Made by a program: the position numbers and the translations under genes. The notes beneath the pieces were generated by a model. That model worked only from the letters and a program-made list of their open reading frames with translations, did no database searches and was not told the origin of the DNA. A stretch of DNA of 59,471 bases, taken from the IMG/VR virus record IMGVR_UViG_3300002835_000205, positions 1 to 59,471 of that record. One strand, written 5' to 3'. Each line of letters begins with the position of its first letter. Position 1 is the first letter of the stretch. Positions 1,473-56,515 of this stretch are shown piece after piece. This stretch comes from a virus.

Positions 1473-2630
1473 ATGGCAAACATCCCTATTTGGCCGGGTT
1501 CGGCATCATTCTTTCAAGGAGACACTCCCTATGGAACATATGATAATGAATATGCATTTCAGCAAGATGCAGACATGATTGCAGATTGGTGTGCAAGGAG
1601 ATTAGGCTACCCTATAGTGGATGTAGAATTACAACAATCAAACTTTTTTGCAGCATTTGAGGAGGCAGTAACTGAATATGGTTCTCAAGTAAATACTTAT
1701 GTCAGTAGAGATAACTTACTATATTTATTGGGAGTAAATACAGGTTCTCAAAGTTTAACTCAAGAGTATGTAGATGCTAACAATTCTTCAATATTCAAGT
1801 TATCAGAGCATTACGGAACACCTGTAGGTGTAGGAGGAAATGTTACATATTTTACAGGTAGTTTACAAATACGGCAAGATAAACAAACATATGATTTATC
1901 TAAGGATACCTCAATTGCACTAGAATCAGGTTCATTTATCAATGGTAATTACACAATAAGAAAAATACATCATTATCCAATACCTGCATTAGTAAGGTAT
2001 CAAGACCCATACGGAGGTTCAGGATTAGGTACACAAGGATTAATAAATGGTTTTGAACTAGGAGGTTATACGGCTGCTGCAAGTTTCATGCTATATCCTT
2101 TAAATGCTGATTTACTTAGAGTGCAAGGAATAGAATTTAATGATTTAATTAGAAAGAGTGCATATAGTTTTCGTTTAGTAAATAATAGATTAACTATATT
2201 CCCAATACCTTTACGAGATACTACACTACACTTTGAGTATACTTTAAATAATATGGAAAGTAATCCATTAAAACGGGGGAGAGGACGCATAAGCGATTAC
2301 TCAAATGTACCATATAGTAACATGGTATACTCACGTATAAATGCAATGGGAAAACAATGGATAAAAAAATATACACTAGCACTATCTAAAGAGATGTTAG
2401 GATATGTAAGAAGTAAATATAGTTCTATACCTATACCTGAATCAGATATTACATTAAATGGTGATGCATTACTAAGTGCAGCAGAAGCAGAAAAAACATC
2501 ATTAATTGAAGAGTTAAAAGAAATTCTAGACCAATTCTCAAGACAGAATTTACTAGAAAGAAAAGCAGCTGAATCAGAAGCATTGCAAGTTGAAATGAGT
2601 AGAGTACCCTTAAGATTTTATATAGGATGA
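1473..2630 (+). CDS. Neck/head-completion-type virion structural protein
   Basis: A 385-residue soluble protein opening the neck-tail gene run. The N-terminal region has a PIVDVELQQSNFFAAFEEAV stretch, where an acidic residue-rich helix follows a conserved beta strand. This resembles the N-terminus of proteins annotated as neck or head-tail connector proteins in T4-like phages of marine bacteria. Position supports that: it precedes two connector-sized proteins and the sheath. The C-terminus is a charged helix. The exact T4 counterpart (gp13 or gp14) cannot be fixed from sequence reading alone. Start chosen at the first ATG after the promoter, with an A-rich leader and no Shine-Dalgarno. Confidence 0.6.
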   Translation: MANIPIWPGSASFFQGDTPYGTYDNEYAFQQDADMIADWCARRLGYPIVDVELQQSNFFAAFEEAVTEYGSQVNTYVSRDNLLYLLGVNTGSQSLTQEYVDANNSSIFKLSEHYGTPVGVGGNVTYFTGSLQIRQDKQTYDLSKDTSIALESGSFINGNYTIRKIHHYPIPALVRYQDPYGGSGLGTQGLINGFELGGYTAAASFMLYPLNADLLRVQGIEFNDLIRKSAYSFRLVNNRLTIFPIPLRDTTLHFEYTLNNMESNPLKRGRGRISDYSNVPYSNMVYSRINAMGKQWIKKYTLALSKEMLGYVRSKYSSIPIPESDITLNGDALLSAAEAEKTSLIEELKEILDQFSRQNLLERKAAESEALQVEMSRVPLRFYIG

Positions 2631-3844
2631 TAAAATTATTAGATATATTAAAAGAAGTTGATTATTCATTACATGTGAATAGATATGATGAATTTGACGT
2701 AGATAAGTTAGAAAAATATGGGGGAGGTACAGATGCTCTAATTATGATGAATGGTAGAGGTACAGGACATTTCGGTTCAGGAACTTATCTATCTACATAC
2801 AAACAGGAGTGGACAAATTTTAATTTAGATTCTCAAAACATAAGAGATGTTTTAGATAAAAATTACGGAAAACCTCTTATACAAGTAAGTTCTGAAATAT
2901 ATGCTATAGATTTAGATAGATACAATTTATATAGACCTAAAAATGAAGAACATGCAGAAATTCTATTTCAATTGTTAAAAACTATTAATGATTTATTTTT
3001 TATATATTCAAGAGAGACAAAACAAAGAAGAAGTGTCAAACAACATTTAACAGATATATTAGATAGTTGTAGAAAGTTAGATTTAAAGTTTACTAAAGAA
3101 TTTGTAAAAAAGGTAAGGTATGAAGTTATGCCAAATTATTCGGATAATTGGAAAGGAGGTGCTAATCTAAAATATAGAGCGAGTATATCTACTATGTTTA
3201 TGGAAGATAATGGTTGGAATGGAGTTAACGTAAATGGAATACCTGTGTATGATAGTACGCTTCATGGTTCTGTAATTTATGATATGAAAAATGTGGTAGA
3301 TGCTCCTAAGCAAACTCCAAACTACTATAAAGATACTTACTCAATGCGTCCTAAAAATTTAAAAGATATAATAACTAAAGCAAATAAATTTAGTTTTGGA
3401 AGGTCTCATATAATTAATTTATCAAACTCAGAAATAAATAGATTATTGAAAATGATTGACTATTATATAATTTCATATTATGACTACAATTCTGATTTTA
3501 AAAGTATGCAAGAAGAAGGTAATATAGATTTACCACAAGTAAAGCATGTAAAAAAAGTATATCCTAACATATTATTTAATAAAATAAAAGATTTAGATTT
3601 TGAAAATAAAGAAATTAGTGACGAAATATATGGATTTTTAATTATGTATTTAGATAAAAATCCAAATGATTATGATAAAAAATATTTGAAGTATTTGAGT
3701 AAAAATTATTATCGTAATAGAAGAGTCTTTATTCCAAAAAATGGGAAAGATGTATTAAATAATTATTTAGAAAGTTTAGATTATGAATCTTTAGATGAGA
3801 ATGAAAAATTTTATTATGATGAGTTAAAAGACGATATACAATAA
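2627..3844 (+). CDS. ADP-ribosyltransferase-like protein with short N-terminal leader
   Basis: A 405-residue protein joined to the preceding gene by an ATGA overlap. The leader MIKLLDILKEVD ends in an L-K-E motif of the type cut by T4 prohead protease. Then come GRGTGHFGSGTYLS (about residues 44-57) and, further on, NGWNGVNVNG and GSVIYDM. The order resembles ART-fold proteins in which a GSGTY-like segment is followed by a GxxGV...GSVIYD strand pair. The C-terminal third is helical, lysine-rich and of unknown function. In T4, the ART Alt is packaged and injected; a similar role here is inference. It interrupts an otherwise structural gene run. Assignment to ART is tentative. Confidence 0.55.
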   Translation: MIKLLDILKEVDYSLHVNRYDEFDVDKLEKYGGGTDALIMMNGRGTGHFGSGTYLSTYKQEWTNFNLDSQNIRDVLDKNYGKPLIQVSSEIYAIDLDRYNLYRPKNEEHAEILFQLLKTINDLFFIYSRETKQRRSVKQHLTDILDSCRKLDLKFTKEFVKKVRYEVMPNYSDNWKGGANLKYRASISTMFMEDNGWNGVNVNGIPVYDSTLHGSVIYDMKNVVDAPKQTPNYYKDTYSMRPKNLKDIITKANKFSFGRSHIINLSNSEINRLLKMIDYYIISYYDYNSDFKSMQEEGNIDLPQVKHVKKVYPNILFNKIKDLDFENKEISDEIYGFLIMYLDKNPNDYDKKYLKYLSKNYYRNRRVFIPKNGKDVLNNYLESLDYESLDENEKFYYDELKDDIQ

Positions 3845-3853
3845 TATAATATT

Positions 3854-5196: not shown

Positions 5197-5220
5197 TATA
5201 ATTTTGAAAAATTTAAGTAC

Positions 5221-8846: not shown

Positions 8847-9062
8847 ATGAACAAGCATAATTCAAAAGTTTTGGAAGAGGGGTTTTTAGCGGGTATACTA
8901 GCATTATTCTCATTTGGTAAACAAGTGAAGATGTTACAGAGAATGTATACAGCAAGTAAAGACCCTGAAATACAAGAGTTGATACATGATATAAAGTTCA
9001 ATGAACAGCGTTACAAAGATGAGATAAGGAGATTAAAGAAGAAAAATCCTAATGTTAAGTAA
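8847..9062 (+). CDS. Small helical protein upstream of the tape measure
   Basis: A 71-residue protein with a hydrophobic N-terminal stretch (GFLAGILALFSFG) and a charged, probably coiled-coil C-terminus ending KKKNPNVK. Its stop shares a base with the tape-measure start (TAATG), so the two are likely translationally coupled. I do not recognise the family. A single short hydrophobic helix could be a weak membrane segment. Confidence 0.6.
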   Translation: MNKHNSKVLEEGFLAGILALFSFGKQVKMLQRMYTASKDPEIQELIHDIKFNEQRYKDEIRRLKKKNPNVK

Positions 9063-29508: not shown

Positions 29509-29523
29509 ACTGTTATATAATAT

Positions 29524-30994: not shown

Positions 30995-30995
30995 T

Positions 30996-32264: not shown

Positions 32265-32267
32265 ATT

Positions 32268-32750: not shown

Positions 32751-32753
32751 AAT

Positions 32754-33497: not shown

Positions 33498-34222
33498 ATT
33501 ACATATACATAGTTAATTTAGGAAATAACAAATATTCAAAGTACTGTATAGACTCTTGGAAAATTTGGGGAAGAAGATACAACATCGAAGTTATAGAATA
33601 TGATGTAGATGTAAATAGTATAGAACCTCATTGGATGAAAGTATTTGCAACGCAGGTATTAGAAGAGTCTGATATAGAATTTGATAAGATAGCTATAGTA
33701 GATAATGATACTATAGTTAATCCTAAATGCCCTAATTTCTTCGATAGCATTAAACCTAATGAGATTGGAGTATCTTTAGATGATACTGATTATGATTGGA
33801 TAGTGAGAAGCATAGAAGCATACCATAAGCATCAGTTTAGTGATTTAGATATAGTTTCACCATTTGAGTACTTTAATTCAGGTTTCATAGTCTTAGATAG
33901 AAATTCAATAGATTTATACAAAGACATAGGAAATTATGTTTTGGCAAATTATAATGACCTGAATTCTATTCAAACTTCTTATGGAGTAGGTAGAGACCAA
34001 ACGGTTTTGAATTTTCTAATAAGAAAATATATAAAAGAAAAGTATAATCATATATCTTTAAAAGTAATGGACATTCGATACAATGTTCAGGGACTAATAT
34101 CTAAAAGGGCATTAAATAAGAATGTTATAAGTGAGTATACCTATGTAACTCATTTTAATGCTATGGATAGAGATTATAGAAATATGCTTATGGATGAATT
34201 ATTTAATATGTACTATGGCTAA
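33494..34222 (+). CDS. GT8-like glycosyltransferase
   Basis: 242 residues. YIYIVNLGNNKYSKYCIDSWKIW opens a GT-A fold, and KIAIVDNDTIVNPKCPNFF gives the D-x-D metal site in the place used by GT8-type enzymes. YFNSGFIVLDR (NSG motif) and GRDQTVLNFLI complete the pattern. It overlaps the next gene by 8 bases; the two are similar and may be tandem duplicates. Confidence 0.78.
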   Translation: MNYIYIVNLGNNKYSKYCIDSWKIWGRRYNIEVIEYDVDVNSIEPHWMKVFATQVLEESDIEFDKIAIVDNDTIVNPKCPNFFDSIKPNEIGVSLDDTDYDWIVRSIEAYHKHQFSDLDIVSPFEYFNSGFIVLDRNSIDLYKDIGNYVLANYNDLNSIQTSYGVGRDQTVLNFLIRKYIKEKYNHISLKVMDIRYNVQGLISKRALNKNVISEYTYVTHFNAMDRDYRNMLMDELFNMYYG

Positions 34223-34964
34223 GAATTTAATATATATAATCAGCATAACAGTTGACTCTGCTAAGATTGACCATAATGAATACTCAAAATATTGTATAAA
34301 AAGTTGGGAGTATTGGTGTAAGAATAATAACTGTGACCTTAAAGTAATCAAAACTAATGATGAACGATGTGGTAGAGTTGTGTGGAATAAAGAACTTATA
34401 TTCGAACATGGAGTAGGTTATGATAAGATTGGTATAGTTGATGCCGATACTATGATAAAATGGGATGCACCTAATGTATTTGATATGTTCGAAGAAGATT
34501 TCTGTATGGTTAGAGATTTAGTTAATTGGGCTTGGGTATATGACAGCATAAAGAATTACGGTAAATTTTTTAAAGGAGTTCCACTAGACATTACAAATTA
34601 TGGTAATACGGGTGTTATGTTTTTCCATAAACTATACTTACCTTTATTCGAAGAAATATTTAATTTCTATTTAAAAAATAGAACGGAGTTAGATAATTGG
34701 GATAAGGGGGGTGGAAGAGAGCAGACTATATTAAATTTCCATCTCGCAAAAAATAATGTCAATATAAAATTTTTGGATGGAAGTTGGAATATTCTAGGAA
34801 TGTTTTCTAAAGGTTGGTTTAAGAGCAATACCCAATTGCATTCAGATGAACTACATATGATAAAGTATGGGAACATATGGCACTTTACAGGATTTGACAT
34901 AGAGAGTAGAACTGAGAGAGTAAAGCATGTATGGGATTTAGTAAAACATAACTATAATGGATAA
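34215..34964 (+). CDS. GT8-like glycosyltransferase, paralogue of the preceding gene
   Basis: 249 residues from the ATG at 34215. It shares EYSKYCIKSWEYW, KIGIVDADTMIKW (D-x-D), NTGVMFF and GREQTILNFHL with the upstream gene. Its last codons (HVWDLVKHNYNG) are exactly duplicated 710 bases downstream, showing that an insertion carried a copy of this 3' end. Confidence 0.78.
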   Translation: MAKNLIYIISITVDSAKIDHNEYSKYCIKSWEYWCKNNNCDLKVIKTNDERCGRVVWNKELIFEHGVGYDKIGIVDADTMIKWDAPNVFDMFEEDFCMVRDLVNWAWVYDSIKNYGKFFKGVPLDITNYGNTGVMFFHKLYLPLFEEIFNFYLKNRTELDNWDKGGGREQTILNFHLAKNNVNIKFLDGSWNILGMFSKGWFKSNTQLHSDELHMIKYGNIWHFTGFDIESRTERVKHVWDLVKHNYNG

Positions 34965-34965
34965 T
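34926..34965 (+). repeat. 40-bp direct repeat, left copy
   Basis: Identical to 35636-35675. It covers the last 12 codons and stop of the GT8-like gene plus one base. Together the copies bound a 670-base segment with one gene. Confidence 0.95.
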
Positions 34966-35001
34966 AACGAAATATAATTTTAAGATGGATTTTTTTTAAA
35001 T

Positions 35002-35014
35002 TATATATATATAG
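35002..35014 (+). promoter_or_regulatory. Candidate promoter of the inserted cassette
   Basis: TATATATATATAG followed by TAAAAA, 16 bases before the ATG at 35031. A variant of the TATATTTATAG box, carried inside the repeat-bounded segment so the cassette brings its own signal. Confidence 0.4.
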
Positions 35015-35030
35015 TAAAAATAAAATACAG

Positions 35031-35579
35031 ATGAAATTAAGAAGATTTTTAACAACAATAACAAGAGAGTTATTGAACGAAAGGTTGGTGTTAGGTAAAA
35101 ATGAAAGGGTTCACCTTAGTAAAACACCTATTCAAAATATTGAAATTAAAAGTAAAAACAAAGATGTACTTGGAAAACCTAGTGGACTATGGTATGGTTT
35201 TGGAAGTAATTGGATTAATTTCAAGAAGTATGGTGTTACTTGGGATGCTAAGGATAACACATCATTGAAAGATGTAATGAAGAGTGATGTCTATATTTAT
35301 AAATTATATTTAGATACGAGTAAAATTCTTACTTTGAACACTGAAGATTCATACATAGATTTCACAAGACAATATAGCACAAACACAAATTATCCATATA
35401 ACATAGATTGGGATTTAGTTTCCAAAAAATATAAAGGTATAGAATTTCCAAATTATGAAGATTTAAATGTTAGAGATTTACACCGAAAATCAAAAGAATA
35501 TGAATGGATATATTCAATTGATATGAATTCAGGTTGTATTTGGGATGGTTCTGCGGTAAAAAAACATAGATTACTATAA
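35031..35579 (+). CDS. Cassette protein: capsid-targeting-like leader plus KPxGLW/SGCIW domain
   Basis: 182 residues. The leader MKLRRFLTTITRELLNER is nearly the same as that of the ART-like gene at 56120, in protein and DNA, and ends in LLNE, an [LI]xE site like those cut by T4 prohead protease. The rest has VHLSKTP, GKPSGLWYGFGSNWINF, YIYKLYLDTSKILTLNT, YKGIEFPNY and SIDMNSGCIWDGS. I recognise this order from a widespread uncharacterised protein family of bacteria and phages (KPxGLW ... SGCIW) that may have an ART-like fold; that fold call is weak. It is the only gene between the 40-bp direct repeats. Confidence 0.7.
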   Translation: MKLRRFLTTITRELLNERLVLGKNERVHLSKTPIQNIEIKSKNKDVLGKPSGLWYGFGSNWINFKKYGVTWDAKDNTSLKDVMKSDVYIYKLYLDTSKILTLNTEDSYIDFTRQYSTNTNYPYNIDWDLVSKKYKGIEFPNYEDLNVRDLHRKSKEYEWIYSIDMNSGCIWDGSAVKKHRLL

Positions 35580-35584
35580 AATTT

Positions 35585-35638
35585 ATGTGTTTTGTAAAAA
35601 TTATTTTTGAGTTTTAAAACGAAACTCAGGTAACACAT
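35585..35638. other. Nested inverted repeats at the cassette's 3' end
   Basis: Outer arms ATGTGTT (35585-35591) and AACACAT (35632-35638) enclose an inner hairpin, TGAGTTT (35608-35614) and AAACTCA (35622-35628) with a 7-base loop. No T tract follows on the + strand, so a simple terminator is unlikely in that direction. On the - strand a T-rich run follows the inner hairpin. Confidence 0.55.
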
Positions 35639-35675
35639 GTATGGGATTTAGTAAAACATAACTATAATGGATAAT
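35636..35675 (+). repeat. 40-bp direct repeat, right copy
   Basis: Identical to 34926-34965. It still encodes HVWDLVKHNYNG-stop and contains the ATG (35667) of the next glycosyltransferase, so it is probably the original gene junction. Confidence 0.95.
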
Positions 35676-36398
35676 TCAGATATACTATTCGTAGTTCCGA
35701 CTATAATGAATAGACCTTTATACGAAATACTTAATTTGGAGAATTGTGCTAAAAATTTTCCTGAGTCAAGATTTTTATTTATATCTAACGTAGAGGATGA
35801 AAATTTCAGTAACTACGAACCTACACTAGATAATATAGAGAAATATGTATCGGGAGTACAGTATTCTATAAGTGAAGCTATAAATAAAGGATATAGATTA
35901 AATCATTCAGAAGAGTATTTTTGTTTTTTACAATCAGATGTACATATAACAAAGGATAGTATAAATTCTATAAAGAACCTATGTAATGATGTTAATCTAA
36001 ATGTTGGCGTTGTGGGTATAACTAAACATTCTAATTTTAATAGATTCAATAAAAGATTAGGTATGTTTTATGGAATGGATATCCATAAAGTATTGTGGGC
36101 TGATGGTATCATGTTCTTTAAGATGTCTATGTTTGATAGCATTGGATTATTCGATACATCATATTTTGGAGATAAAGAGAGTCAAGATTTTTGTTACAGA
36201 GCACATGACTCAGGATACAATAATCTATTTGTTGAATCTTGTACAGAAAATCATAGATGGATTCATAATTCAATAACATTTTCAGAGAAATCTAAAACTG
36301 ATAATTCTAATTTTAGAAAATTAGTTACCGAATCAAGAAACATATTTGCAAAAAAATGGTACGAATGGGAAGACAGACAAACACATTTATTTGTGTAG
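35667..36398 (+). CDS. GT2-like glycosyltransferase
   Basis: 243 residues, beginning DILFVVPTIMNRPLYEIL. The GT-A metal region reads FCFLQSDVHITKD, followed by VLWADGIMFFKMSMFDSIGLFDTSYFGDKESQDFCYRAHDSGY, a typical GT2 acceptor loop with an ED-like E-S-Q-D motif. It begins within the right 40-bp repeat and overlaps the next gene. Confidence 0.78.
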   Translation: MDNSDILFVVPTIMNRPLYEILNLENCAKNFPESRFLFISNVEDENFSNYEPTLDNIEKYVSGVQYSISEAINKGYRLNHSEEYFCFLQSDVHITKDSINSIKNLCNDVNLNVGVVGITKHSNFNRFNKRLGMFYGMDIHKVLWADGIMFFKMSMFDSIGLFDTSYFGDKESQDFCYRAHDSGYNNLFVESCTENHRWIHNSITFSEKSKTDNSNFRKLVTESRNIFAKKWYEWEDRQTHLFV

Positions 36399-37057
36399 TA
36401 TTTCATCACTCACATCTTAGAACTGAGGGATATGAAATAGCTAAAGAATTTTACCAATCTTGGAAGGATTGCAAATTCAAAATGAATTTAGTCATACTAG
36501 ATAATGAATCTACCTGTGATTTTGATTTCGTAGATAAAACAGAATGTGATTACATAAGAATAGATAGCCAAGAAGCTAATGGAGGTATCACAGGAGCTTG
36601 GAATACTATATGTAAGTATGCTATAGATAAAGGTGCTGAAATCATAATGGGATTTAATGATGATATATTACTTAACGACTCATTAGAGGTATTAGCTTTA
36701 AATACTATAGATGATAACAAAATATATGTACCAATAACAGATGGTATGCATGATGCATGGATTGAGCAGAAATCAGATGGTATTAAAGAAGGGTTTAGAC
36801 TTACTGTAAAATCTATAAATGGTTTTTTCATGTCTTTCACATCAGGATTTTGGAAACATAAATCTGTTGATAATAAATTATTTATAAATCACATATTTGA
36901 TAATGGGGATTACATTGATGATTGGGCAGGTCAAGAGTTAATGTTATGGCTTTGGAATTCAAAATATAATACAGATGCAGATATCATAGGAGATTGTTGG
37001 ATTCATCATAAAAAGTTGCGAAGTTGGAAAAAAGCAAGAAAACACTATGAACGTTAA
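36356..37057 (+). CDS. GT2-like glycosyltransferase
   Basis: Up to 233 residues; an ATG at 36365 is equally likely. LVILDNESTCDFDF, ANGGITGAWNTICKYAIDKGAEIIMGFNDDILLND give a GT-A fold with a D-D-x metal motif. SINGFFMSFTSGFW and DWAGQELMLWLWNS follow, then a basic C-terminus. It overlaps both neighbours by 11-43 bases. Confidence 0.75.
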   Translation: MVRMGRQTNTFICVVFHHSHLRTEGYEIAKEFYQSWKDCKFKMNLVILDNESTCDFDFVDKTECDYIRIDSQEANGGITGAWNTICKYAIDKGAEIIMGFNDDILLNDSLEVLALNTIDDNKIYVPITDGMHDAWIEQKSDGIKEGFRLTVKSINGFFMSFTSGFWKHKSVDNKLFINHIFDNGDYIDDWAGQELMLWLWNSKYNTDADIIGDCWIHHKKLRSWKKARKHYER

Positions 37058-37709
37058 TCTTAAATTTACAATAAGTTCACATAAGAATTTTTATGATAAG
37101 ACTTTAAATGTACTAGTACCAAGTCTACTAGATTCAGGTATTCCAAATAATGATATATATTTTTTTGTAGGAGGGTATGATGTATATGAAAGTATACCTA
37201 ATGAATATAATATAAACCTATATAAAGCATCACATAATTCTATAGATTTTACAGGTTTAATTTCAGTAATAGATTTGACTATTAAAGCAGACTATTGGTT
37301 TTTATGCCATGATACTTGTAGAGTAGGTAGTAAATTCTATGATAGTATAAAAAATAATAACTTCAATACAGATACTATTAGATTAACTTCTGAAAATAGA
37401 AGTATGAATATAGGAGCATATAAACAAAGTTACATATATAGTATTAAAGAGAAAATACTTTCTTATAGAGGCAGCTCAAGTGCTGAATATAACATACAGA
37501 AATTAAAAAAAAGATTGATAGATGAGGAGGATTCATTACTCAAATCAGATAGCATAGGAAATTTTAATAAGAGTCAAAGAAAGGTAATAGATTCTAACAA
37601 CATATACGATAGCAATGTAAGAAGAATCACAGAATATTTTCCCGATATAGATTTTTACAAGATGAAATCAAATTGGAAACCCAAAGAAGAGTACGAACTA
37701 AATATATAA
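37047..37709 (+). CDS. Putative GT-A-like protein of the glycosyltransferase cluster
   Basis: 220 residues with LKFTISSHKNFYDKTLNVLVPSLLDSGI, then a DYWFLCHDTCRVGSKF segment where GT-A enzymes carry their acidic metal motif (here H-D-T). The family is not clear to me; the glycosyltransferase call rests on the fold-like pattern and neighbours. Confidence 0.5.
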   Translation: MNVNLKFTISSHKNFYDKTLNVLVPSLLDSGIPNNDIYFFVGGYDVYESIPNEYNINLYKASHNSIDFTGLISVIDLTIKADYWFLCHDTCRVGSKFYDSIKNNNFNTDTIRLTSENRSMNIGAYKQSYIYSIKEKILSYRGSSSAEYNIQKLKKRLIDEEDSLLKSDSIGNFNKSQRKVIDSNNIYDSNVRRITEYFPDIDFYKMKSNWKPKEEYELNI

Positions 37710-37711
37710 TA

Positions 37712-38341
37712 ATGAACGAAATTAACAAAAGTATTTACAACAATTTAGAATTACTTCCTGAAGATTTACAGGGTTGGAATGGAAATAGTAAGGTATTTAA
37801 ACAACTTATAGACGCTGTTAATCCAAAAGTAATTATAGAAGTTGGAACTTGGAAAGGACTGTCTGCAATTACAATGGCAGAGCATATAAAACATACCAAT
37901 AAATGCACAAAGATATATTGTGTTGATACTTGGTTAGGTGCTATAGAATTTTGGAGTTCTCACAAAAGCACTCCTGAAAGAGATTTGTTACTAAAGAATG
38001 GATATCCTAATATATATTATCAATTTTTAAGTAATGTAGTTCATAGAAAAGTAGAGGATATCATAATACCATTTCCAAATACATCCTACATAGGATATTT
38101 ATATTTTAAATCACAAAATATAAAAGCAGATATGATATACATAGATGCATCTCATGATGAATTTGATGTGTACAATGATATTAAACATTATATGGAAATA
38201 TTAAATACTAATGGAGTAATCTTCGGGGATGATTATAAAAGTTGGGAAGGCGTAAAAAAAGCTGTAGATAGGTATTCTTATGAAAATGATTTAGATGTTC
38301 AATTAGCAGAAAATAATTTTTGGGTTATAAATAAAAAGTAG
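37712..38341 (+). CDS. SAM-dependent methyltransferase (class I, Methyltransf_24-like)
   Basis: A protein of about 209 residues from the ATG at 37712. VIIEVGTWKGLSAITMA is the SAM-binding glycine loop, IYCVDTWLG the acidic motif II, and MIYIDASHDEFDVYNDIKHYMEIL..GVIFGDDY the late motifs with the 'D-A-x-H' of sugar and small-molecule O-methyltransferases. In a glycosyltransferase cluster it probably methylates a transferred sugar; this is inference. Confidence 0.8.
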   Translation: MNEINKSIYNNLELLPEDLQGWNGNSKVFKQLIDAVNPKVIIEVGTWKGLSAITMAEHIKHTNKCTKIYCVDTWLGAIEFWSSHKSTPERDLLLKNGYPNIYYQFLSNVVHRKVEDIIIPFPNTSYIGYLYFKSQNIKADMIYIDASHDEFDVYNDIKHYMEILNTNGVIFGDDYKSWEGVKKAVDRYSYENDLDVQLAENNFWVINKK

Positions 38342-38342
38342 T

Positions 38343-39383
38343 ATGATGAAGTTGAAGACAAAAGAAAAGCCTAAGATAGCTATAGGAACTTTAATACAAT
38401 GGTATGAAGTTGAAATAGTTTCTGAATACTTAAAAAGTTTGGTAGAAGCTATAAAGTATTATTCAAAGTATAGAGGTACATATAATAAAGATTATGGTGT
38501 AGAAACTATATACTTAGATTTTGAGATACATTCAGGAACAATGCTAGAGAAACCTATAAATGATGTAAGAATATCTGATATAGTTACTCAAATTAAAAAC
38601 ACCATATCATCAGAAATATCTCAAAATATTCCTGATATAAATGTTTATATAAATGTTGTAGATAGAGTAAGAACTGTAGCAGATTACAGGAGAGATTTTA
38701 ATACAGTGTTTTCTACAATAACTGATATATTAGTTTGGGGGGAGACTGATATGATATTTCCTAAAGAATACTTAATAGCTATAGATGGATTACATACATC
38801 GGAACAAACTGAATCAAAATATGTTGCCACATTTGGAATAACTAAAATGTGGGATGATTCATGGAAACCATTAGAACATCGTAAAGTAGCAGATAAACCA
38901 TTCATAGAGGGAGACACTGAGAATTGGTGGTCTGTCAGACATACCATAACATTAGATGAGTTGAATAATATTAACGATGAGGAAAGTAAATTTGAAATAC
39001 TTAATATTAGTCCTTTGAAATTTAATGGATGTGGATTAGTTATATCATCTGAATTAGTAAAATCAGGTGTCAACATACCAAACAGTATATTCTTTGTTCA
39101 TGAGGATACTGCTTTTATGTTAATGTGCCAAAGGATATTCCCAAATTTAAAACAATATCATATAGCAAATATACTTATGGGACATAATAGAAAGCATCCT
39201 AAGAAAAGGTCTTATATTCAAGGGGAGGAAGGAATAGATAAAACAAATTTAGGAGCTTTAAGAAAAAGTCATGAATGGTATCCTCTAGCAAATCAGTATT
39301 GTGAAATGAACTGTCATAATTTGTTTAACGAGAATTATATAGCATATACTTGGGACGATGTGTTTGCTAAAATTCAACATTAA
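38343..39383 (+). CDS. GT-A-like glycosyltransferase of phage type
   Basis: 346 residues. PKIAIGTLIQWYEVEIVSEYL opens the fold, and TDILVWGETDMIFPKE provides an E-x-D metal motif. FFVHEDTAFMLMCQ and NILMGHNRKHPKKRSY follow and look like an acceptor loop and basic region. Related proteins stand in glycosyltransferase clusters of other large phages. Substrate unknown. Confidence 0.6.
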   Translation: MMKLKTKEKPKIAIGTLIQWYEVEIVSEYLKSLVEAIKYYSKYRGTYNKDYGVETIYLDFEIHSGTMLEKPINDVRISDIVTQIKNTISSEISQNIPDINVYINVVDRVRTVADYRRDFNTVFSTITDILVWGETDMIFPKEYLIAIDGLHTSEQTESKYVATFGITKMWDDSWKPLEHRKVADKPFIEGDTENWWSVRHTITLDELNNINDEESKFEILNISPLKFNGCGLVISSELVKSGVNIPNSIFFVHEDTAFMLMCQRIFPNLKQYHIANILMGHNRKHPKKRSYIQGEEGIDKTNLGALRKSHEWYPLANQYCEMNCHNLFNENYIAYTWDDVFAKIQH

Positions 39384-39410
39384 TTTTACGAATGTTTAAA
39401 ATATTTTATG

Positions 39411-39418
39411 TATCTTTG
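39411..39418 (+). promoter_or_regulatory. Bacteroidota-type -7 box TATCTTTG
   Basis: TATCTTTG followed by CA is the textbook Bacteroidota -7 element. It lies in the one real gap (46 bases) within the second half of the glycosyltransferase cluster, before the gene at 39430. Confidence 0.6.
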
Positions 39419-39429
39419 CAGAATAATAA

Positions 39430-40416
39430 ATGATACAATTTATGAAAATAGCTTGGTTTTCGGAATGGAGTCAAAATGTCGATAAGTTATCTAGGGATTT
39501 TAATAATATGCGTACTGAGTATGCTTGGTATGTAGCTCAAGGTGCTTCTCACTATAATATATTTGAATTACTAAAATTAGAATCCAATTCTATAGATGTA
39601 GGTATTATTATCATACCTAAAAACATAGACAAGTATTATAATATTTCTGTCGGAGATGATACTTCAAATTGGGACATAGTAAAAGACCTGAAAAGAGTTT
39701 GTAAGAAGTATGCATTTATGCAGGAGGGTGCATCTTGGATATTTCAAGATTATAAACCTTCCCAAACTTTTTGGTTTTATAATATAATGGTTAATGCTGA
39801 TTTTTTCTTGTGTCATAATGAACGAGATAAATCATACTATAAAGGATTACTTAATAAAAATGGATTTATAAATCCTACTCTAATGATAGAAGATTCTATT
39901 AAAGATTTACCTAAAGTTGATAGGTCTAATGTTATTATAGGGGGTAATTTAGTAAGGTATTATGGAGGATTTAATTCTTTGATTGTTGGGTTGGAAATAG
40001 AAGATGAGGTCTATGCACCATCTATGGGTAGAATGCATCAGGAGGAGCTTATGGTAAGTGTCATAAACAATCTACCTTATAAGACTTGGAGAGATTGGAT
40101 TTATAAGCTTAATGAATTTAGGTATGCTGTACATTTAAATCCAAATTCAATAGCAGGTACATTCAGTTTGAATTGTGCATATCTAGGCATACCTTGTATA
40201 GGCAATATCAACTCAGATACTCAGAGAATATGCTATCCTAAAACTTCATTTGAACCTGATGATTTAGAATCTTGCAAAAAAGTTGCGAAGATGCTAAAAA
40301 CAGATACAAAATTCTATGATGAAGTAGCTGAAGAATCAACATATAATTACATAAAATATTTTTCAGAGGAAAGATATAAACTTAATTGGAGAGATATACT
40401 AAAATCAATATCATGA
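39430..40416 (+). CDS. GT-B-like glycosyltransferase
   Basis: Up to 328 residues; the ATG at 39442 (MKIAWFSEWSQN) is an equally good start. A Rossmann opening is followed by NADFFLCHNERDKSYY and a C-terminal donor-site-like stretch, FRYAVHLNPNSIAGTFSLNCAYLGIPCIGNINSDTQ, where GT4 enzymes have their E-x7-E motif (here without the first Glu). The enzyme may be divergent. It overlaps the next gene by ATGA. Confidence 0.65.
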   Translation: MIQFMKIAWFSEWSQNVDKLSRDFNNMRTEYAWYVAQGASHYNIFELLKLESNSIDVGIIIIPKNIDKYYNISVGDDTSNWDIVKDLKRVCKKYAFMQEGASWIFQDYKPSQTFWFYNIMVNADFFLCHNERDKSYYKGLLNKNGFINPTLMIEDSIKDLPKVDRSNVIIGGNLVRYYGGFNSLIVGLEIEDEVYAPSMGRMHQEELMVSVINNLPYKTWRDWIYKLNEFRYAVHLNPNSIAGTFSLNCAYLGIPCIGNINSDTQRICYPKTSFEPDDLESCKKVAKMLKTDTKFYDEVAEESTYNYIKYFSEERYKLNWRDILKSIS

Positions 40417-41597
40417 AAATATCACTAATACAACCAAGTAGAAATAATTTAAAGTATTTGAAATGGTCATATGCTTCTATTAGAAAAAATCAAGGGAATC
40501 ACACCGTTCAGATTTGTGTGGCAGATGATTTTTCTAATGATGGTACATGGGAATGGTGCGTACAGAAGATGGAGGAAGATAGTAATTTCAGTGCCATTAG
40601 AAATGAAGGCCCTGATAGATTAGGTCATACTATCTTATATGACAGACTTGTAACTAAGGTAGCAAAGCATGACTATTGCATGATATACCACTCAGATATG
40701 TATTTAGCTCCAAAGGCTCTTGATGCCATTGAAAAGAATATTAAACAAGGTGTAATAGTATCATTAACGAGAGTAGAACCTTCAGGACTTCACCCTGAAG
40801 GGCCAGAAAAGATATTGGAAGATTTCGGCAAAGAACCTGATGAGTTTAAAGAAGCTAAGTTCTTAGATTGGATTGATAACTATTTTAGAAATAACACCAA
40901 CGTACCCGATACCGATGGTATCTTTGCTCCATGGGCATTCTATAAAAAAGACTTTACTAAGATTGGAGGTCACGATATATTATATGCACCACAATCAAAA
41001 GAAGATTCCGATATATTTAATAGATTTATGTTAAATGGAGTAAAATTTATTCAAACTTGGGAAGGATTCGTATATCATCTTACATGTAGAGGTTCTAGGT
41101 ACAACACCACAATTACCGATGTTGGAGTTGATTCAAATGAGTGGTTATTACAGAATTTTAAGAGTGGTAGAAACTTTGTTAGAAAATGGGGTCATTATGT
41201 TATGCATACTCCATTAATGAAACCTATTATACCTCCTAAGTATAATATTGTAGTTAAGTTATTGAACTGTAGAAGATACGAGGCACTAGCTAATATAGAA
41301 CCTTGGTGTGACGTGGTATATACTGATTTTATGGATTATGAAAAATATATTGAGGAAGAGCAGAATAATACTTTATATGATATGAGAGAGAGAGTCATGA
41401 GTTTAGATAAATTTGAAAAAGAGAATATAGTAGTAACTATAGACTTTGATAAATTTACGGATGCAGAAAGATATGCTTTGAATGAACTTTCAACTATACT
41501 TAAAAACAGTAATGTTTTAGGACAGTTTAACTTAGGTTCTATGAAAGTTGAAATATATGATTTATCAACTTATGAGCATACCTTAATCAAGGTATAA
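40413..41597 (+). CDS. GT2-family glycosyltransferase with C-terminal extension
   Basis: A protein of about 394 residues from the ATG at 40413. KISLIQPSRNNLKYLKWSYASI and VADDFSNDGTWEW are the GT2 nucleotide-binding strands (V-x-D-D-x-S-x-D-G-T), MIYHSDMYLAP gives the metal motif and QSKEDSDIFNRFMLNG the acceptor ED-like loop. Residues after about 300 form an extra alpha/beta domain. It ends the cluster. Confidence 0.85.
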   Translation: MKISLIQPSRNNLKYLKWSYASIRKNQGNHTVQICVADDFSNDGTWEWCVQKMEEDSNFSAIRNEGPDRLGHTILYDRLVTKVAKHDYCMIYHSDMYLAPKALDAIEKNIKQGVIVSLTRVEPSGLHPEGPEKILEDFGKEPDEFKEAKFLDWIDNYFRNNTNVPDTDGIFAPWAFYKKDFTKIGGHDILYAPQSKEDSDIFNRFMLNGVKFIQTWEGFVYHLTCRGSRYNTTITDVGVDSNEWLLQNFKSGRNFVRKWGHYVMHTPLMKPIIPPKYNIVVKLLNCRRYEALANIEPWCDVVYTDFMDYEKYIEEEQNNTLYDMRERVMSLDKFEKENIVVTIDFDKFTDAERYALNELSTILKNSNVLGQFNLGSMKVEIYDLSTYEHTLIKV

Positions 41598-42057: not shown

Positions 42058-43545
42058 ATGCTTGAAGAGGATTTAAGAAAATGGTTAAATCAAAAGTGGG
42101 TTAGAATAAATACTGCGGGTACTATAGAAGGTGCTTGTGGTACTTCCAAAAGAAAGGATAATCCAAATAGATGTTTACCATTAGCTAAAGCTAAAAGTTT
42201 GACAAAGGCACAAAGAAAATCTACTGCTATAAAGAAAAGAAAGGCAGGTAGTACGGGGAAACAGTTTGTTAAAAATACTAAGTCAGCTAAAGTTACTAAT
42301 GAATCTGTAGATAAACTTTTACAAGAATATATAGGTAATGAATTGCAAGTATTAAAATCATTTGAATTTAAAAATGAATTACCCTCGGATATATTTGTAG
42401 ATGGAAAACTTATTCCTGAGATAAGGGATAATTTGATGAATATAGCACAACAGTTTATAGATTCATTTGATATGACTGTAGTTATAGAAGATATTATACT
42501 AACGGGTTCTATAGCCAACTATAATTGGTCTAAGTATTCAGATATCGATTTACATTTAATAGTTGATTTTGATAGCACTAAAAAGGATAAGGAACTTTTA
42601 GAAAGATATTTTTATCTGAAGAAATCATTATGGAACAATACATATCCTATAAAAGTTAAAGGTTTTGACGTAGAATTGTATGTAGAGGATTCAAATGAAA
42701 AATCAAAAGCATCGGGACAATATTCTGTTAAAAATGATAAATGGATTGTAGAACCGAATAAATTAAGTATAGAAATAGATTATAATAAAATATACAATAA
42801 ATCTTTGCAATTTAGCAAGGTCATAAATGATTTAGTAAATACTAACAGTAATGCAAAAATACGTATAGAGAAAATAGATAGGCTAAAAAATAAATTAAAG
42901 AACTATAGAAAATCAGGCTTAGATAAAGATGGGGAATATTCCTATGAAAATTTGGTATATAAATTTTTGCGAAGAAGCGGATACCTAGATAAATTAATAG
43001 ACTTAAAAAAAGATTTAATAACTAAGAATTATTCAATGAATGAATCTAAAGCCAAACCTAAAAGAGATAGATGTTATTATAGAGCTGTTAAATCGTATGG
43101 AAATAAGACATCTGCATACAGGTCATTAGCTATGGCAGCTTGTAGAAAAGGTAAAATTTGGAAAAAGAAAAAAGTAAACGAATGCGGATGCTCAGATAAT
43201 AGAGAGGATACTATAAAAGATTTTGTAGATTTTTGTGCAGACACAATGTCTATAAATTCTCCTAATATAAAACTACATACTGAACCGAGAGATAATGTAG
43301 AGACAACTTCATTTGGAGGATACATACCTCATAGTGAAACTATAGAAGTTGTCACGCATAATAGAAACATGGCTGATATACTAAGAACTATAGCACATGA
43401 ATTAGTTCACCATAAACAGAATGTATCAGGAATGCTTCATAGTAAGTCAGGAAACGATGGGTCTAATCATGAAAATCAAGCTAATGCCATAGCAGGTGTA
43501 CTAATGAGAGTTTATGGAAAAAATAATCCACACATATATGAATAA
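42058..43545 (+). CDS. Multidomain protein: basic leader domain, nucleotidyltransferase, basic Cys domain, zinc metallopeptidase
   Basis: 495 residues with four separable units. (1) 1-78: WVRINTAGTIEGACGTSKRKDNPNRCLP..., a Lys/Cys-rich domain found as a separate small protein in other phages. (2) About 95-320: a polymerase-beta-type nucleotidyltransferase with TGSIANYNWSKYSDIDLHL (G150-S151, D162, D164). (3) About 331-370: KPKRDRCYYRAVKSYG..., a basic Cys domain. (4) 375-495: a metallopeptidase with HELVH (447-451) and a likely third ligand in HENQAN. Boundaries carry LLQE, SMNE and KVNE, which resemble prohead-protease sites, so it may be a polyprotein packed in the head. Processing is inference. 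Confidence 0.7.
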   Translation: MLEEDLRKWLNQKWVRINTAGTIEGACGTSKRKDNPNRCLPLAKAKSLTKAQRKSTAIKKRKAGSTGKQFVKNTKSAKVTNESVDKLLQEYIGNELQVLKSFEFKNELPSDIFVDGKLIPEIRDNLMNIAQQFIDSFDMTVVIEDIILTGSIANYNWSKYSDIDLHLIVDFDSTKKDKELLERYFYLKKSLWNNTYPIKVKGFDVELYVEDSNEKSKASGQYSVKNDKWIVEPNKLSIEIDYNKIYNKSLQFSKVINDLVNTNSNAKIRIEKIDRLKNKLKNYRKSGLDKDGEYSYENLVYKFLRRSGYLDKLIDLKKDLITKNYSMNESKAKPKRDRCYYRAVKSYGNKTSAYRSLAMAACRKGKIWKKKKVNECGCSDNREDTIKDFVDFCADTMSINSPNIKLHTEPRDNVETTSFGGYIPHSETIEVVTHNRNMADILRTIAHELVHHKQNVSGMLHSKSGNDGSNHENQANAIAGVLMRVYGKNNPHIYE

Positions 43546-45415: not shown

Positions 45416-45425
45416 TATATTTATA
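45416..45425 (+). promoter_or_regulatory. Candidate late promoter box TATATTTATA
   Basis: TATATTTATAATAG lies 23 bases before the chosen ATG at 45449, in a 50-base gap. It fits the recurring box; an AAT/AGT-rich stretch follows. Confidence 0.45.
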
Positions 45426-45448: not shown

Positions 45449-46312
45449 ATGAGATATAAGATACATGAGGATGTAGATGATGAAGATGTATTTGAAAAGA
45501 ATATAAGTAAAATAACAACTGATACTATCAGATTGGACAATATGCCAAAGGGCTTTAAGTCTATTCCTCATGAATGGAAACAAATTCATGTAGATTCTTG
45601 GTTAGTACTCAAAATACATTTAAAAAACAAGTTTAATATAAAAGGTCGTAGAGAAAAAATAGAACCATACTTTACTTCCAAGGGAGAAAATAAACACATT
45701 CGAATATCTAATTTGTATCCTCCTAAGAAAATAGTTAAAAAAAGTGCGGTAGATGCATTATCTAATAGTAAAAGTCTCAGACCTGCATATGTAATACAAT
45801 ATAAGAACAAATACTTCCCTTTTGATTTAGAAGATGTCACCATAGCAGCAATAGACATTATACAGAATAATGGTTTAATCGGCCCTTGCTTAGTCATTAA
45901 CCTATCTGACTCCAATAGAAAAGATATGGGAAACATCTTAGGTAAAACTTTCGATATGGATAGAGTATTTCAATTTTTAGAAGTACCTGAAGCAGATGAA
46001 GATAAAGGTAAAGATGAGGCTGAATTAAAGAAACAAGGTTTATCTGATAAACAAATAGATTTATACAATAATCCGTCTGACAGCGAAAGTATTGATATAG
46101 GTTTTAAAGATTCTACAGAATCTCACAACAGCATTAAAAGACTTAATAAACTAGATAATAATGCTCATAAGATTAGAGCAGCACAATTCATGATTAATAG
46201 GTTAGATGGAACTCTTACAAGAACAAAAGACCCTGATAAGAAAAAGAAATTAAAAAGAAGCAGAAGTATTTGGAATGCGTATAAACAATTAATATCTAAA
46301 GAATTCGATTAG
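45449..46312 (+). CDS. Unknown protein with short [LI]xE-type N-terminus
   Basis: About 287 residues from the ATG at 45449 (an upstream in-frame TTG would start within the promoter box). MRYKIHED gives an I-H-E tripeptide at residues 5-7, like the leaders discussed for the ART-like genes. An alpha/beta domain follows (SWLVLKIHLKNKF, PAYVIQYKNKYFPF, GPCLVINLSD), then a very charged helical C-terminus (LTRTKDPDKKKKLKRSRSIW). Function not recognised; basic tail could bind DNA. Confidence 0.55.
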   Translation: MRYKIHEDVDDEDVFEKNISKITTDTIRLDNMPKGFKSIPHEWKQIHVDSWLVLKIHLKNKFNIKGRREKIEPYFTSKGENKHIRISNLYPPKKIVKKSAVDALSNSKSLRPAYVIQYKNKYFPFDLEDVTIAAIDIIQNNGLIGPCLVINLSDSNRKDMGNILGKTFDMDRVFQFLEVPEADEDKGKDEAELKKQGLSDKQIDLYNNPSDSESIDIGFKDSTESHNSIKRLNKLDNNAHKIRAAQFMINRLDGTLTRTKDPDKKKKLKRSRSIWNAYKQLISKEFD

Positions 46313-53323: not shown

Positions 53324-53329
53324 AAAATC

Positions 53330-53491: not shown

Positions 53492-53492
53492 T

Positions 53493-54224: not shown

Positions 54225-54236
54225 ATCGTAAAGTTT

Positions 54237-54482: not shown

Positions 54483-54559
54483 CAAATAATTAACATTATT
54501 ATTTAGGAAACTTACAATAATAATCTTAAATTTGATTTCACTTTCAAAATAGTTTCAAC

Positions 54560-54913: not shown

Positions 54914-54918
54914 TAGCT

Positions 54919-55459: not shown

Positions 55460-55487
55460 ATTTTATTATGATAAAAAACACAAAATT

Positions 55488-56090
55488 ATGAGTATCACAA
55501 AAATTTCATTAGAAAACAAAAACGACTCATCTTGTATATCTGCTATTAATATCAGTAAATCAAGAGTACTTAAAACCACTATAAAAAAAATAGCTGAGTA
55601 TTGGATTGAAAATACTAATATCCACGAATCAGAATTAAATTTTGATTGGGCTGATGCTTACACTAATTGTTGGAATTGTGGTGATGATAAGTATTCAAAA
55701 TCACAAAAAAAAGTTTTTTTACAAAGATGTCATATAATACCACATGCTTTAGGTGGTTCGGATACTCCTAGTAACTATGTTCTTCTTTGTAAACAATGTC
55801 ATGCCGAAGCTCCAAATATTGCTAACACTGATGATATGTGGGATTGGATTAAATCTAATCGTGTACCTTATTCTATTTATGGTACATATAGAATTAATAA
55901 GGCATTGATAATGTTTGAGCAAAGAGAAGGAGAATCTTTTTTTGAAAAAATAGTAAAAAAAGAAAACTTTGATATTAAAAATGTTAATAATTTACTCAGT
56001 AATAGTAAGAATACTATTAATAGTCATGGTTTCGATAAGTATAACGTTAGCTCGTGGTATTATTTACTAAAACATATTGCTTATAATTAA
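55488..56090 (+). CDS. HNH endonuclease with zinc-binding Cys pairs
   Basis: About 200 residues from the ATG at 55488. CWNCGD, then FLQRCHIIPHALGGSDTPSNYVLLCKQCHAEAPN: two Cys pairs and an intact H-N-H core (IIPHALGG, N, CKQCH). The N-terminal part is basic (SRVLKTTIKKIAEYW) and the C-terminal part Asn/Lys-rich. Free-standing HNH genes in phages are often mobile; this one directly precedes an ART-like cassette gene. It could also be a restriction-type nuclease. Confidence 0.82.
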   Translation: MSITKISLENKNDSSCISAINISKSRVLKTTIKKIAEYWIENTNIHESELNFDWADAYTNCWNCGDDKYSKSQKKVFLQRCHIIPHALGGSDTPSNYVLLCKQCHAEAPNIANTDDMWDWIKSNRVPYSIYGTYRINKALIMFEQREGESFFEKIVKKENFDIKNVNNLLSNSKNTINSHGFDKYNVSSWYYLLKHIAYN

Positions 56091-56119
56091 AACACTAAAA
56101 AGAAAAACAAAATAAAACA

Positions 56120-56515
56120 ATGAAAAATTTGAGAAAATTTATCACAACTACAATAAGAGAGTTGTTGAATGAGAACATATCAAATAACATTATATATCGT
56201 GGTGGATTACCGTTAGATATAAATAAGGTTAAGTCAGATGGTGTTTCTTTTACAACAAATATTGAAATTGGTAAATTTTGGGCTGGTAGTGTAGTCGGGG
56301 GTAAACTATTTCAATATAAATTAAAAGATAATGCTAATATTTTAACCACAAATGATTTTCCAAAAAAAATTATACCAAGAGAAAGACCATATAACCATCA
56401 AGATAAAGAAAGAATAGTTAATCATGCTTTGGTTGAAGGTTACGATGGTGTTGATTTGAGTGGATATTTCAATGAAAGTGAAATTAGGATATTCAATCTT
56501 GATGTTGTAATTTAA
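56120..56515 (+). CDS. ART-fold-like protein with capsid-targeting-like leader
   Basis: 131 residues. Leader MKNLRKFITTTIRELLNEN matches that of the cassette protein at 35031 almost residue for residue and ends in LLNE. The mature part (NIIYRGGLPLDI..., GVSFTTNIEIGKFWAG, LFQYKLKDNANILTTNDF, ALVEGYDGVDLSG, NESEIRIFNLDVV) fits a small ADP-ribosyltransferase fold: R in YRG (R-S-E type), the 'S-x-T/S' like VSFTT strand and the final S-E-I-R-I with the catalytic-Glu position. This is the clearest ART candidate in the window; activity is inferred. Confidence 0.7.
   Translation: MKNLRKFITTTIRELLNENISNNIIYRGGLPLDINKVKSDGVSFTTNIEIGKFWAGSVVGGKLFQYKLKDNANILTTNDFPKKIIPRERPYNHQDKERIVNHALVEGYDGVDLSGYFNESEIRIFNLDVVI

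What the first reader, a model, noticed from the sequence alone, without database searches (positions are those of the whole stretch)
2627..56515. A set of unrelated proteins with N-terminal [LI]xE leaders: candidate virion-packaged, injected effectors
Genes at 35031 (MKLRRFLTTITRELLNER) and 56120 (MKNLRKFITTTIRELLNEN) share an 18-residue leader but nothing after it; the ART-like protein at 2627 begins MIKLLDILKEVD, the small membrane protein at 43538 has FNILSEA and the protein at 45449 has YKIHED. In T4, internal head proteins and the ART Alt carry short N-terminal capsid-targeting peptides cut by prohead protease after LxE/IxE. A common swap-in leader on three ART-like or ART-candidate proteins would make a modular system for packaging and injecting host-modifying enzymes in a Bacteroidota phage.
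Basis: partly seen in the sequence, partly recalled or inferred. Interest (0 to 1): 0.82.

Follow-up and report, generated by a model that had tools for sequence, protein, structure and literature searches.

The report
Phage tags that package injected proteins
Many uncultured relatives of phage T4 put the same short, probably cut-off tag on the front of dozens of unrelated proteins, most likely to load them into the virus head for delivery into the next bacterium, so the tag may let us list candidate injected proteins straight from DNA.

Summary
The leader shared by 35031 and 56120 is the window's only strong N-terminal match; it recurs before mostly unrelated proteins in 15 other viral contigs, ending in invariant N-E. 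The leader of 2627 (MIKLLDILKE) belongs to a second class: one pattern, MIKLxD[IL]LxE, precedes 70 protein families. With positions 9-10 left free, 104 of 114 ORFs have Glu at position 10 (6% expected). Lengths and layout match the T4 capsid-targeting sequences of IPII/IPIII and IPI and the gp24 propeptide, read from the T4 record. A gp21-type protease lies in 7 of 9 related contigs but was not found in this 59-kb fragment. Gene 2627 sits exactly after a neck gene; that site is empty in 32 of 41 related loci, and in another lineage holds an unrelated leader-bearing protein. Best reading: an expanded T4-type capsid-targeting and cleavage system for head-packaged, probably injected proteins. Not supported: 43538. 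Inconclusive: 45449, and whether the three window proteins are ADP-ribosyltransferases. Virion presence, cleavage and injection are untested.

The parts
2627..2656 (+). Class-1 leader MIKLLDILKE (10 residues); predicted cut after Glu10
   Evidence: Fits the MIKLxD[IL]LxE pattern found before 70 families; Glu10 kept in the five homologues that reach the N-terminus
2657..3844 (+). Cargo behind the class-1 leader, 395 aa; ART-like by eye only
   Evidence: No Pfam family over its cut-off, no PHROG match; model pLDDT 57.9 overall and below 50 in residues 1-69 and 166-241
1473..2630 (+). Neck gene (head-tail adaptor Ad2 family); gene 2627 overlaps its stop codon and so appears to lie in a virion operon
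   Evidence: phrog_211, E 3.2e-13; ORF coordinates
1422..1429 (+). TATTTATA, candidate late promoter of the neck operon that includes 2627
   Evidence: Same motif upstream of sheath 5265, tube 7198 and 8847
35031..35081 (+). Class-2 leader MKLRRFLTTITRELLNE (17 residues); predicted cut after Glu17
35082..35579 (+). Cargo behind the class-2 leader; leaderless weak relatives exist in actinophages
   Evidence: tblastn E 2e-3 to 3e-2 in the 20 of 44 records listed; alignment A4 with three of them shows they begin where the cargo begins
56120..56173 (+). Class-2 leader MKNLRKFITTTIRELLNE (18 residues); predicted cut after Glu18
56174..56515 (+). Cargo behind the class-2 leader; ART-like by eye only
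   Evidence: One homologue with the same leader, L269/L395; model pLDDT 32.3, uninformative
45449..45469 (+). Possible short leader MRYKIHE (7 residues), lower confidence
   Evidence: Protein homologous to L215, which starts MIKLIDLLVE; TATTTATA 31 nt upstream
45470..46312 (+). Cargo of the possible short leader, function unknown
   Evidence: no Pfam family over its cut-off
45418..45425 (+). TATTTATA, candidate late promoter before 45449
42058..43545 (+). Multidomain protein MLEE|DLRKWL...: DUF5872-like start, nucleotidyltransferase, metalloprotease-like end; minimal leader possible, low confidence
   Evidence: Pfam NTP_transf_2 9.1e-5; PHROGs 36119, 23735, 87; relatives such as L267 read LIDE|SLRDWF

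Best explanation
These are capsid-targeting propeptides of the T4 kind. Late in infection the phage makes unrelated cargo proteins that each carry one of a few stock leaders of about 7-19 residues. The leader, probably an amphipathic helix, docks the protein onto the prohead core; the gp21-type prohead protease then cuts after the Glu of [LI]xE and frees the mature cargo inside the head, from where it is probably ejected into the next host with the DNA. New cargo is gained by placing a leader in front of a new domain, sometimes at fixed spots in virion operons such as the junction behind the neck gene. Shown from sequence: leader sharing, conserved Glu, unrelated cargo, protease in relatives, insertion into a virion gene cluster. 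Inferred: late expression, docking, cutting, packaging and injection.
For: One ATG-anchored pattern, MIKLxD[IL]LxE, gave 150 matches in the 120 IMG/VR stretches at which the scan stopped, 149 opening an ORF of 50 aa or more; the same pattern ending in Asp gave 73 in the whole collection, 40 opening such an ORF. The 149 proteins form 70 families behind the leader. With positions 9-10 free, 104 of 114 distinct ORFs have Glu10 against 6.3% background, and 6 of 10 exceptions hold [LI]xE within residues 7-20 against 13%. The 35031/56120 leader recurs in 15 loci before mostly unrelated proteins; over 18 aligned proteins only M1, R13, E14, L16, N17, E18 are invariant, and 15 of 19 such genes have TATTTATA within 50 nt upstream against 23 of 204 other ORFs. 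T4 record: ipII and ipIII MKTYQEFIAE|A, ipI MKTFKEFTSTTTPVSTITE|A, gp24 MAKINELLRE|S (cut sites recalled). T4 mutagenesis places targeting at residues 4 and 7, processing at 8 and 10, and Asp10 blocks processing (passages of PMC9026906). Clustering of N-termini without the motif finds ipII/ipIII as the only cluster in 49 kb of T4 (ipI is not joined), and leader clusters in immuto and G002 that include genes beside the protease. Peptidase_S77 in 7 of 9 longer related contigs; in 19 of 26 contigs of 60 kb or more with the class-1 leader against 4 of 16 without, Fisher p 0.004. Gene 2627 is a clean insertion: 32 of 41 loci are empty there; L053/L054 hold an unrelated MKKSELKKIIREEIELLKED protein. 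Three aligned actinophage relatives of the 35031 cargo lack the leader.
Against: No virion proteomics was available. No Peptidase_S77 was found in the window, in its 99% relative G008 or in 11 near-relative contigs of 61 kb or shorter; these are fragments, so this neither supports nor refutes. Seven of 26 long leader-bearing contigs show none, including G025 of 207 kb. The protease association may simply mean that both are traits of T4-like phages; it is not corrected for relatedness. TATTTATA is not enriched upstream of class-1 genes: 10 of 130 against 135 of 1322. The bare [LI]xE count stands far out in only one of eight genome sets. Three protease-positive records (G001, G003, G047) show no N-terminal cluster in which every member has [LI]xE. 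Position 11 is loose and often Ile or Val, whereas the T4 sites fetched here have Ala or Ser. The hydrophobic positions of class 1 were fixed by my search patterns.
Confidence: 0.86

Rival explanations
1. The leaders are targeting helices without cleavage: they bring proteins to a phage-built structure (core, replication compartment, host RNA polymerase) and stay on.
For: Leaders look like amphipathic helices and hydrophobic positions are kept; sequence alone does not show cutting.
Against: Conservation stops right after Glu; Glu10 in 104 of 114, and [LI]xE is regained at a shifted position in 6 of 10 exceptions; S77 association.
Confidence: 0.08
2. The shared N-termini come from common ancestry of the genes, the rest having diverged beyond recognition.
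For: Some cargo groups are related to each other.
Against: The 70 representatives include NUDIX, RNase_T, AAA/zeta-toxin-like, LRR, ART-PolyVal and cell-wall hydrolase matches; the 35031 cargo has leaderless relatives.
Confidence: 0.02
3. The window members are a chance resemblance: [LI]xE is common and only two genes match by accident.
For: Bare motif enrichment is weak in the window (24 of 76 against 17.4); 43538 looks accidental.
Against: Pair score 58 against a null maximum of 43 in 199155 draws; both window leaders recur elsewhere.
Confidence: 0.02
4. The cargo is packaged but not injected: head-internal structural or DNA-condensing proteins.
For: T4 core proteins are also cut by gp21 (passage of PMC9026906); many cargos have no known domain.
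Against: Several cargos match domains known from polyvalent proteins that are predicted to be injected, and a clean, variable insertion site suggests accessory genes.
Confidence: 0.12

Closest known systems
Phage T4 capsid-targeting sequences (IPI, IPII, IPIII, Alt) and the gp24 propeptide, cut by gp21
   Same: Short N-terminal propeptide ending [LI]xE, 10 residues (IPII, IPIII, gp24) or 19 (IPI), Glu at the end, unrelated mature proteins, gp21-family protease in relatives
   Different: Leader sequences differ; at least four leader classes were seen; the cargo repertoire is far larger (70 families behind one leader pattern alone); cargo genes are scattered; cutting is not shown
T-even internal-protein variation: diverse internal proteins sharing only the CTS (PMC3012670, passages)
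   Same: A conserved leader with a diverse set of proteins behind it
   Different: Here it spans many uncultured phage contigs and includes enzyme families not mentioned for T-evens in the passages I read
SPN3US head propeptides cut at A-X-E (PMC5694885, passages)
   Same: Prohead protease cuts after Glu; gp53 and gp54 share an identical N-terminus
   Different: Their propeptides are mostly over 100 residues and the motif is AXE
P1 DarB N-terminal packaging signal (PMC9024508, passages)
   Same: An N-terminal signal sends an internal protein, and a reporter, to the capsid
   Different: Lies within the first 30 residues of one 250-kDa protein; no shared stock leader in the passages I read
Polyvalent proteins and packaged phage ARTs (PMC5512222 and PMC9503650, passages)
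   Same: Same kinds of domains (ART-PolyVal, MPTase-PolyVal, NUDIX); predicted to be packaged and injected
   Different: Those are large fusions or argued from gene neighbourhood; the terms 'capsid targeting' and 'leader' do not occur in the main text of PMC5512222

Membership tests
T4-type capsid-targeting sequence (CTS) | Short N-terminal stretch shared by proteins that are otherwise unrelated | tested here: met
T4-type capsid-targeting sequence (CTS) | Ends in [LI]xE, the gp21 cut site | tested here: met
   Glu10 in 104 of 114 with the position left free; 6 of 10 exceptions hold [LI]xE nearby; invariant L16, N17, E18 in class 2
T4-type capsid-targeting sequence (CTS) | Hydrophobic residues at 4, 7 and 8 (T4 IPIII mutagenesis) | tested here: inconclusive
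   Class 1 has L4, I/L7, L8, but these were fixed by the search patterns; 2627 and the G002 leaders, found without the pattern, agree
T4-type capsid-targeting sequence (CTS) | gp21-family protease (PF03420) in the same genome | tested here: inconclusive
   Not found in the window fragment, G008 or 11 short near-relative contigs; present in 7 of 9 longer relatives and 19 of 26 long leader contigs
T4-type capsid-targeting sequence (CTS) | Head core genes beside the protease carry the same leaders | tested here: met
   In relatives, not the window: immuto gp072 (between portal gp074 and protease gp070) and the G002 gene at L108 15574 cluster with cargo leaders
T4-type capsid-targeting sequence (CTS) | Late expression with virion genes | tested here: inconclusive
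   2627 overlaps the neck gene; class 2 has TATTTATA in 15 of 19, though 35031 and 56120 themselves have none within 80 nt; class 1 not enriched, 10 of 130
T4-type capsid-targeting sequence (CTS) | Protein present in virion with cut N-terminus | not testable with these tools
   Needs virion proteomics
T4-type capsid-targeting sequence (CTS) | Mature protein enters the host cell | not testable with these tools
   Needs infection assays
ADP-ribosyltransferase (Alt or ART-PolyVal) for window proteins 2627, 35031, 56120 | Match to an ART family or fold | tested here: inconclusive
   No ART family among Pfam matches at E up to 1; no PHROG match for 2627 and 56120, one of unknown function at 0.038 for 35031; no usable PDB sequence match for 2627 or the 35031 family; models too poor to search. 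Other class-2 cargo: L396 matches ART-PolyVal at 7.4e-6, below its cut-off
Polyvalent protein | Large multidomain protein | tested here: not met
   The 70 class-1 representatives are 77-443 aa; in the window only 42058 is clearly multidomain
Sec signal peptide | Long uninterrupted hydrophobic core near the N-terminus | tested here: not met
   Sec-like N-termini cluster separately in immuto and G047; by inspection the leaders lack such a core

The most novel reading that the evidence does not exclude
T4-like phages of uncultured communities use a small set of interchangeable, cleavable leaders as a general export code into the virion head, loading many different enzymes per genome (kinase-like, nucleotidase, NUDIX, ART, acetyltransferase, metallopeptidase and many unknown) for injection into the next host; fixed sites in virion operons act as docking points for new cargo. 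The leader is then a genome-readable label for hundreds of unknown phage effectors.
Probability: 0.68. Interest if true: 0.86.

Novelty: new variant of a known kind. Interest (0 to 1): 0.76.

Why it matters
Beyond a few model phages little is known of which proteins phages inject. If the leader is a real export label, candidate injected proteins can be listed from sequence in uncultured phages, and the claim can be tested at once by virion proteomics of one cultured phage (immuto). It would also show how phages recruit new cargo: by adding a stock tag to a new domain.

Tried and rejected
Plain counting of [LI]xE near N-termini: too weak except in G002. Exact class-2 pattern scan: returned only two near-identical copies of the 35031 gene; a single-sequence search with 56120 found no relatives; the two-row alignment A2 found 15. 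Structure models of 2627 (pLDDT 57.9) and 56120 (pLDDT 32.3) were too poor to use, so no fold search was run. PDB sequence profiles gave nothing usable: two hits at E 0.054 for 2627, none for the 35031 family. No relative of 35031 in genome contigs; none of 2627 or 56120 in the phages collection. TATTTATA as a mark of class-1 genes: rejected. 43538 and 46314 considered as leader proteins and dropped: relatives show no consistent leader, and 46314 (MIKLKEILMYG) has no [LI]xE at the cut position. No paper on immuto virion proteins found. PADLOC scan of the 70 representatives gave six families, one member each, not pursued.

Set aside before counts: one search dropped 11 matches with ORFs under 50 aa (several cut by contig ends) and 6 repeats, and read 119 of the 120 stretches; one search used 149 of 150 matches; one search set aside paralogue pairs (2 in immuto, 3 in G002, 1 in G003, 10 in G001), and searches did likewise; one search used only contigs of 60 kb or more (22 of the leader set, 20 of the Asp control); the 9 records were longer contigs chosen from 80 loci; one search counts 41 of the 87 loci given, those holding both neighbour genes, with L006/L130 one contig and L053/L054 perhaps near-duplicates. 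My gene calls use ATG only and are approximate.
Full report
What was checked. The window is a 59,471-base IMG/VR virus record of unknown completeness with T4-like neck and sheath genes, nearly all on one strand; its nearest cultured relative by sheath protein is Flavobacterium phage immuto (42.8% identity). 35031 and 56120 share their leader far beyond chance (score 58; the next best of 3003 window pairs is 30; 0 of 199155 internal pairs reach it), with only a weak score of 35 behind it.

A second, much wider leader. The 2627 leader MIKLLDILKE fits the pattern MIKLxD[IL]LxE. In 149 of 150 the ATG opens an ORF of at least 50 aa, 139 of these with no in-frame ATG upstream. The same pattern ending in Asp gave 73 stretches in the whole collection, all single, 40 of 73 opening such an ORF; a few of those also look like leader proteins with an [LI]xE a little further on. 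The 149 Glu proteins fall into 70 single-linkage families when residues 12 onward are compared at E below 1e-3.

Glu is not an artefact of the search. With only MIKLKD[IL]L required and positions 9-10 free, 104 of 114 distinct ORFs have Glu at position 10; Glu makes up 6.3% of the rest of these proteins (binomial p about 5e-112, ignoring relatedness). Of the ten exceptions, six hold an [LI]xE within residues 7-20, against 13% for random internal segments (p 7e-4). Position 11 and beyond show no strong conservation. This is what a cut site predicts and a mere targeting helix does not.

The 35031/56120 leader is also widespread. An alignment of 56120 with its one homologue (L269) found 15 loci, one of which, L395, is that homologue again. 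Their proteins start with variants of MKDLRKFIKTTIREFLNE and then differ: with the two window proteins, 17 proteins form 13 groups at E below 1e-3 behind the leader (my grouping of the table; three weaker links, E 0.002-0.004, also appear). Over 18 aligned proteins only M1, R13, E14, L16, N17 and E18 are invariant. L407 has three such genes in a row, just before genes that look like baseplate genes by eye. Cargo includes an ART-PolyVal match (L396, 7.4e-6, below its cut-off) and a GNAT acetyltransferase (L405, 7.1e-7). Fifteen of 19 such genes have TATTTATA within 50 nt upstream against 23 of 204 other ORFs in the same loci (Fisher p 5e-10); the same motif precedes the window's neck, sheath and tube genes, but neither 35031 nor 56120. 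Class-1 genes show no such enrichment, 10 of 130 against 135 of 1322.

Comparison with T4, from its record. ipII and ipIII begin MKTYQEFIAE|A, ipI MKTFKEFTSTTTPVSTITE|A, gp24 MAKINELLRE|S (bars: cut sites, recalled). So both T4 and these phages have a 10-residue and a 17-19-residue form. Passages of PMC9026906 state that T4 IPIII targeting depends on residues 4 and 7, processing on 8 and 10, and that Asp at 10 blocks processing; class 1 has L4, I/L7, L8, E10. The first three were fixed by my patterns, so this is agreement in layout rather than an independent test; the Glu is independent.

Protease and core. Peptidase_S77 is in 7 of 9 longer related records and a prohead protease is annotated in immuto (gp070); it was not found in the window, G008 or 11 short near-relatives, all fragments. 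In contigs of at least 60 kb it is in 15 of 22 with the class-1 leader (9 of 12 of at least 100 kb) and 8 of 20 Asp-control contigs; four of the latter also carry Glu leaders and all four have the protease, giving 19 of 26 against 4 of 16 (p 0.004). The reversed pattern gave no match in 48 records. Clustering of first 25 residues without using the motif found: in immuto a Sec-like cluster plus three clusters with [LI]xE (LKKFLVENKLT, 4 genes; MKKSQLR.IIKEEL, 4 genes including gp072 between portal and protease; MKKQILSEQFKRMQ, 2 genes) and one other pair; in G002 two leader clusters, one including the gene next to the protease, plus one other pair; clusters in which every member has [LI]xE number 3 in G015, 2 in G023 (both picked for their leaders), 2 in G051, and 1 (ipII/ipIII) in 49 kb of T4. 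Three protease-negative contigs (G033, G035, G041) gave no such cluster; three protease-positive ones (G001, G003, G047) gave none either.

Modularity. Gene 2627 overlaps the stop of the neck gene. In 41 of 87 examined loci both neighbours are present: 32 have a gap of 3-38 nt, including L002 whose neighbours are 98-100% identical; six (five contigs) hold an orthologue of 2627; L004 holds a 42-residue remnant that keeps the leader and the end of the protein; L053 and L054 hold a 144-aa protein starting MKKSELKKIIREEIELLKED, another leader class. The 35031 cargo has weak relatives (tblastn E 2e-3 to 3e-2 in the 20 of 44 records listed); the three aligned, from Gordonia, Microbacterium and Nocardia phages, start at the mature part and have no leader. 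45449 is homologous to a protein with a class-1 leader.

What the cargo may be. Among the 70 class-1 representatives Pfam matches (25 of 39 families shown, usually one member each) include DUF5824, NUDIX, RNase_T, ART-PolyVal, cell-wall hydrolase, DUF5872, LRR, AAA/zeta-toxin-like and MPTase-PolyVal; PHROGs adds 5'-3' deoxyribonucleotidase, polynucleotide kinase and cytidyltransferase. Several are domains of polyvalent proteins, predicted to be packaged and injected (passages of PMC5512222; PMC9503650). The three clear window cargos have no identified domain.

Literature. In searches I saw, by titles, abstract starts and the passages read, no paper describing shared capsid-targeting leaders in phages other than T-evens, giant phages and P1. 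Limits: open-access library only; one search showed 30 of 31 papers and only 20 of 1,091; I read passages, not whole papers. So I file this as a new variant of a known kind.

Verdict. The leaders on 2627, 35031 and 56120 are real and very probably T4-type capsid-targeting propeptides; 45449 possible; 43538 not supported. Cutting, packaging and injection remain to be shown.

Noticed in passing
window 42058-43545: 495-aa protein joining a DUF5872-like start, a nucleotidyltransferase, a third domain and a metalloprotease-like end; similar domains occur in separate, some leader-bearing, proteins of relatives.
   Followed up: partly
window 8847-9062: Small protein just before the 1234-aa gene 9062 (tape-measure-like by size and place); its family keeps an [LI]xE(G/S) at varying distance from the start, followed by a hydrophobic stretch; possibly also a protease substrate.
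   Followed up: no
window 943, 1422, 5221, 7175, 8826, 22381, 41612, 45418, 47642: TATTTATA upstream of genes, some of them structural: a candidate late-promoter motif of this phage group, the reverse complement of the T4 late motif TATAAATA (recalled).
   Followed up: partly
window 28158-41597: Long run of genes, many of which look like glycosyltransferases by eye, with 35031 in the middle.
   Followed up: no
L083 14261-14575 (immuto gp082): Annotated as tRNA(Ile2) agmatinyltransferase TiaS, but it is a 104-aa relative (52% identity) of the leader-bearing L212 protein; the annotation looks wrong.
   Followed up: partly
L004 3639-3764: Remnant ORF: leader and end of the 2627 protein with the middle missing, right behind the neck gene.
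   Followed up: partly
L081-L083, L427, L449-L466: Two more leader types recur across genomes: MK[KR]SELxxIIKEEI and a type with RMQxLAG[IL] before [LI]xE.
   Followed up: partly
window 1-507: Collagen-like GxQG repeats at the left edge, the end of a probable tail-fibre gene.
   Followed up: no
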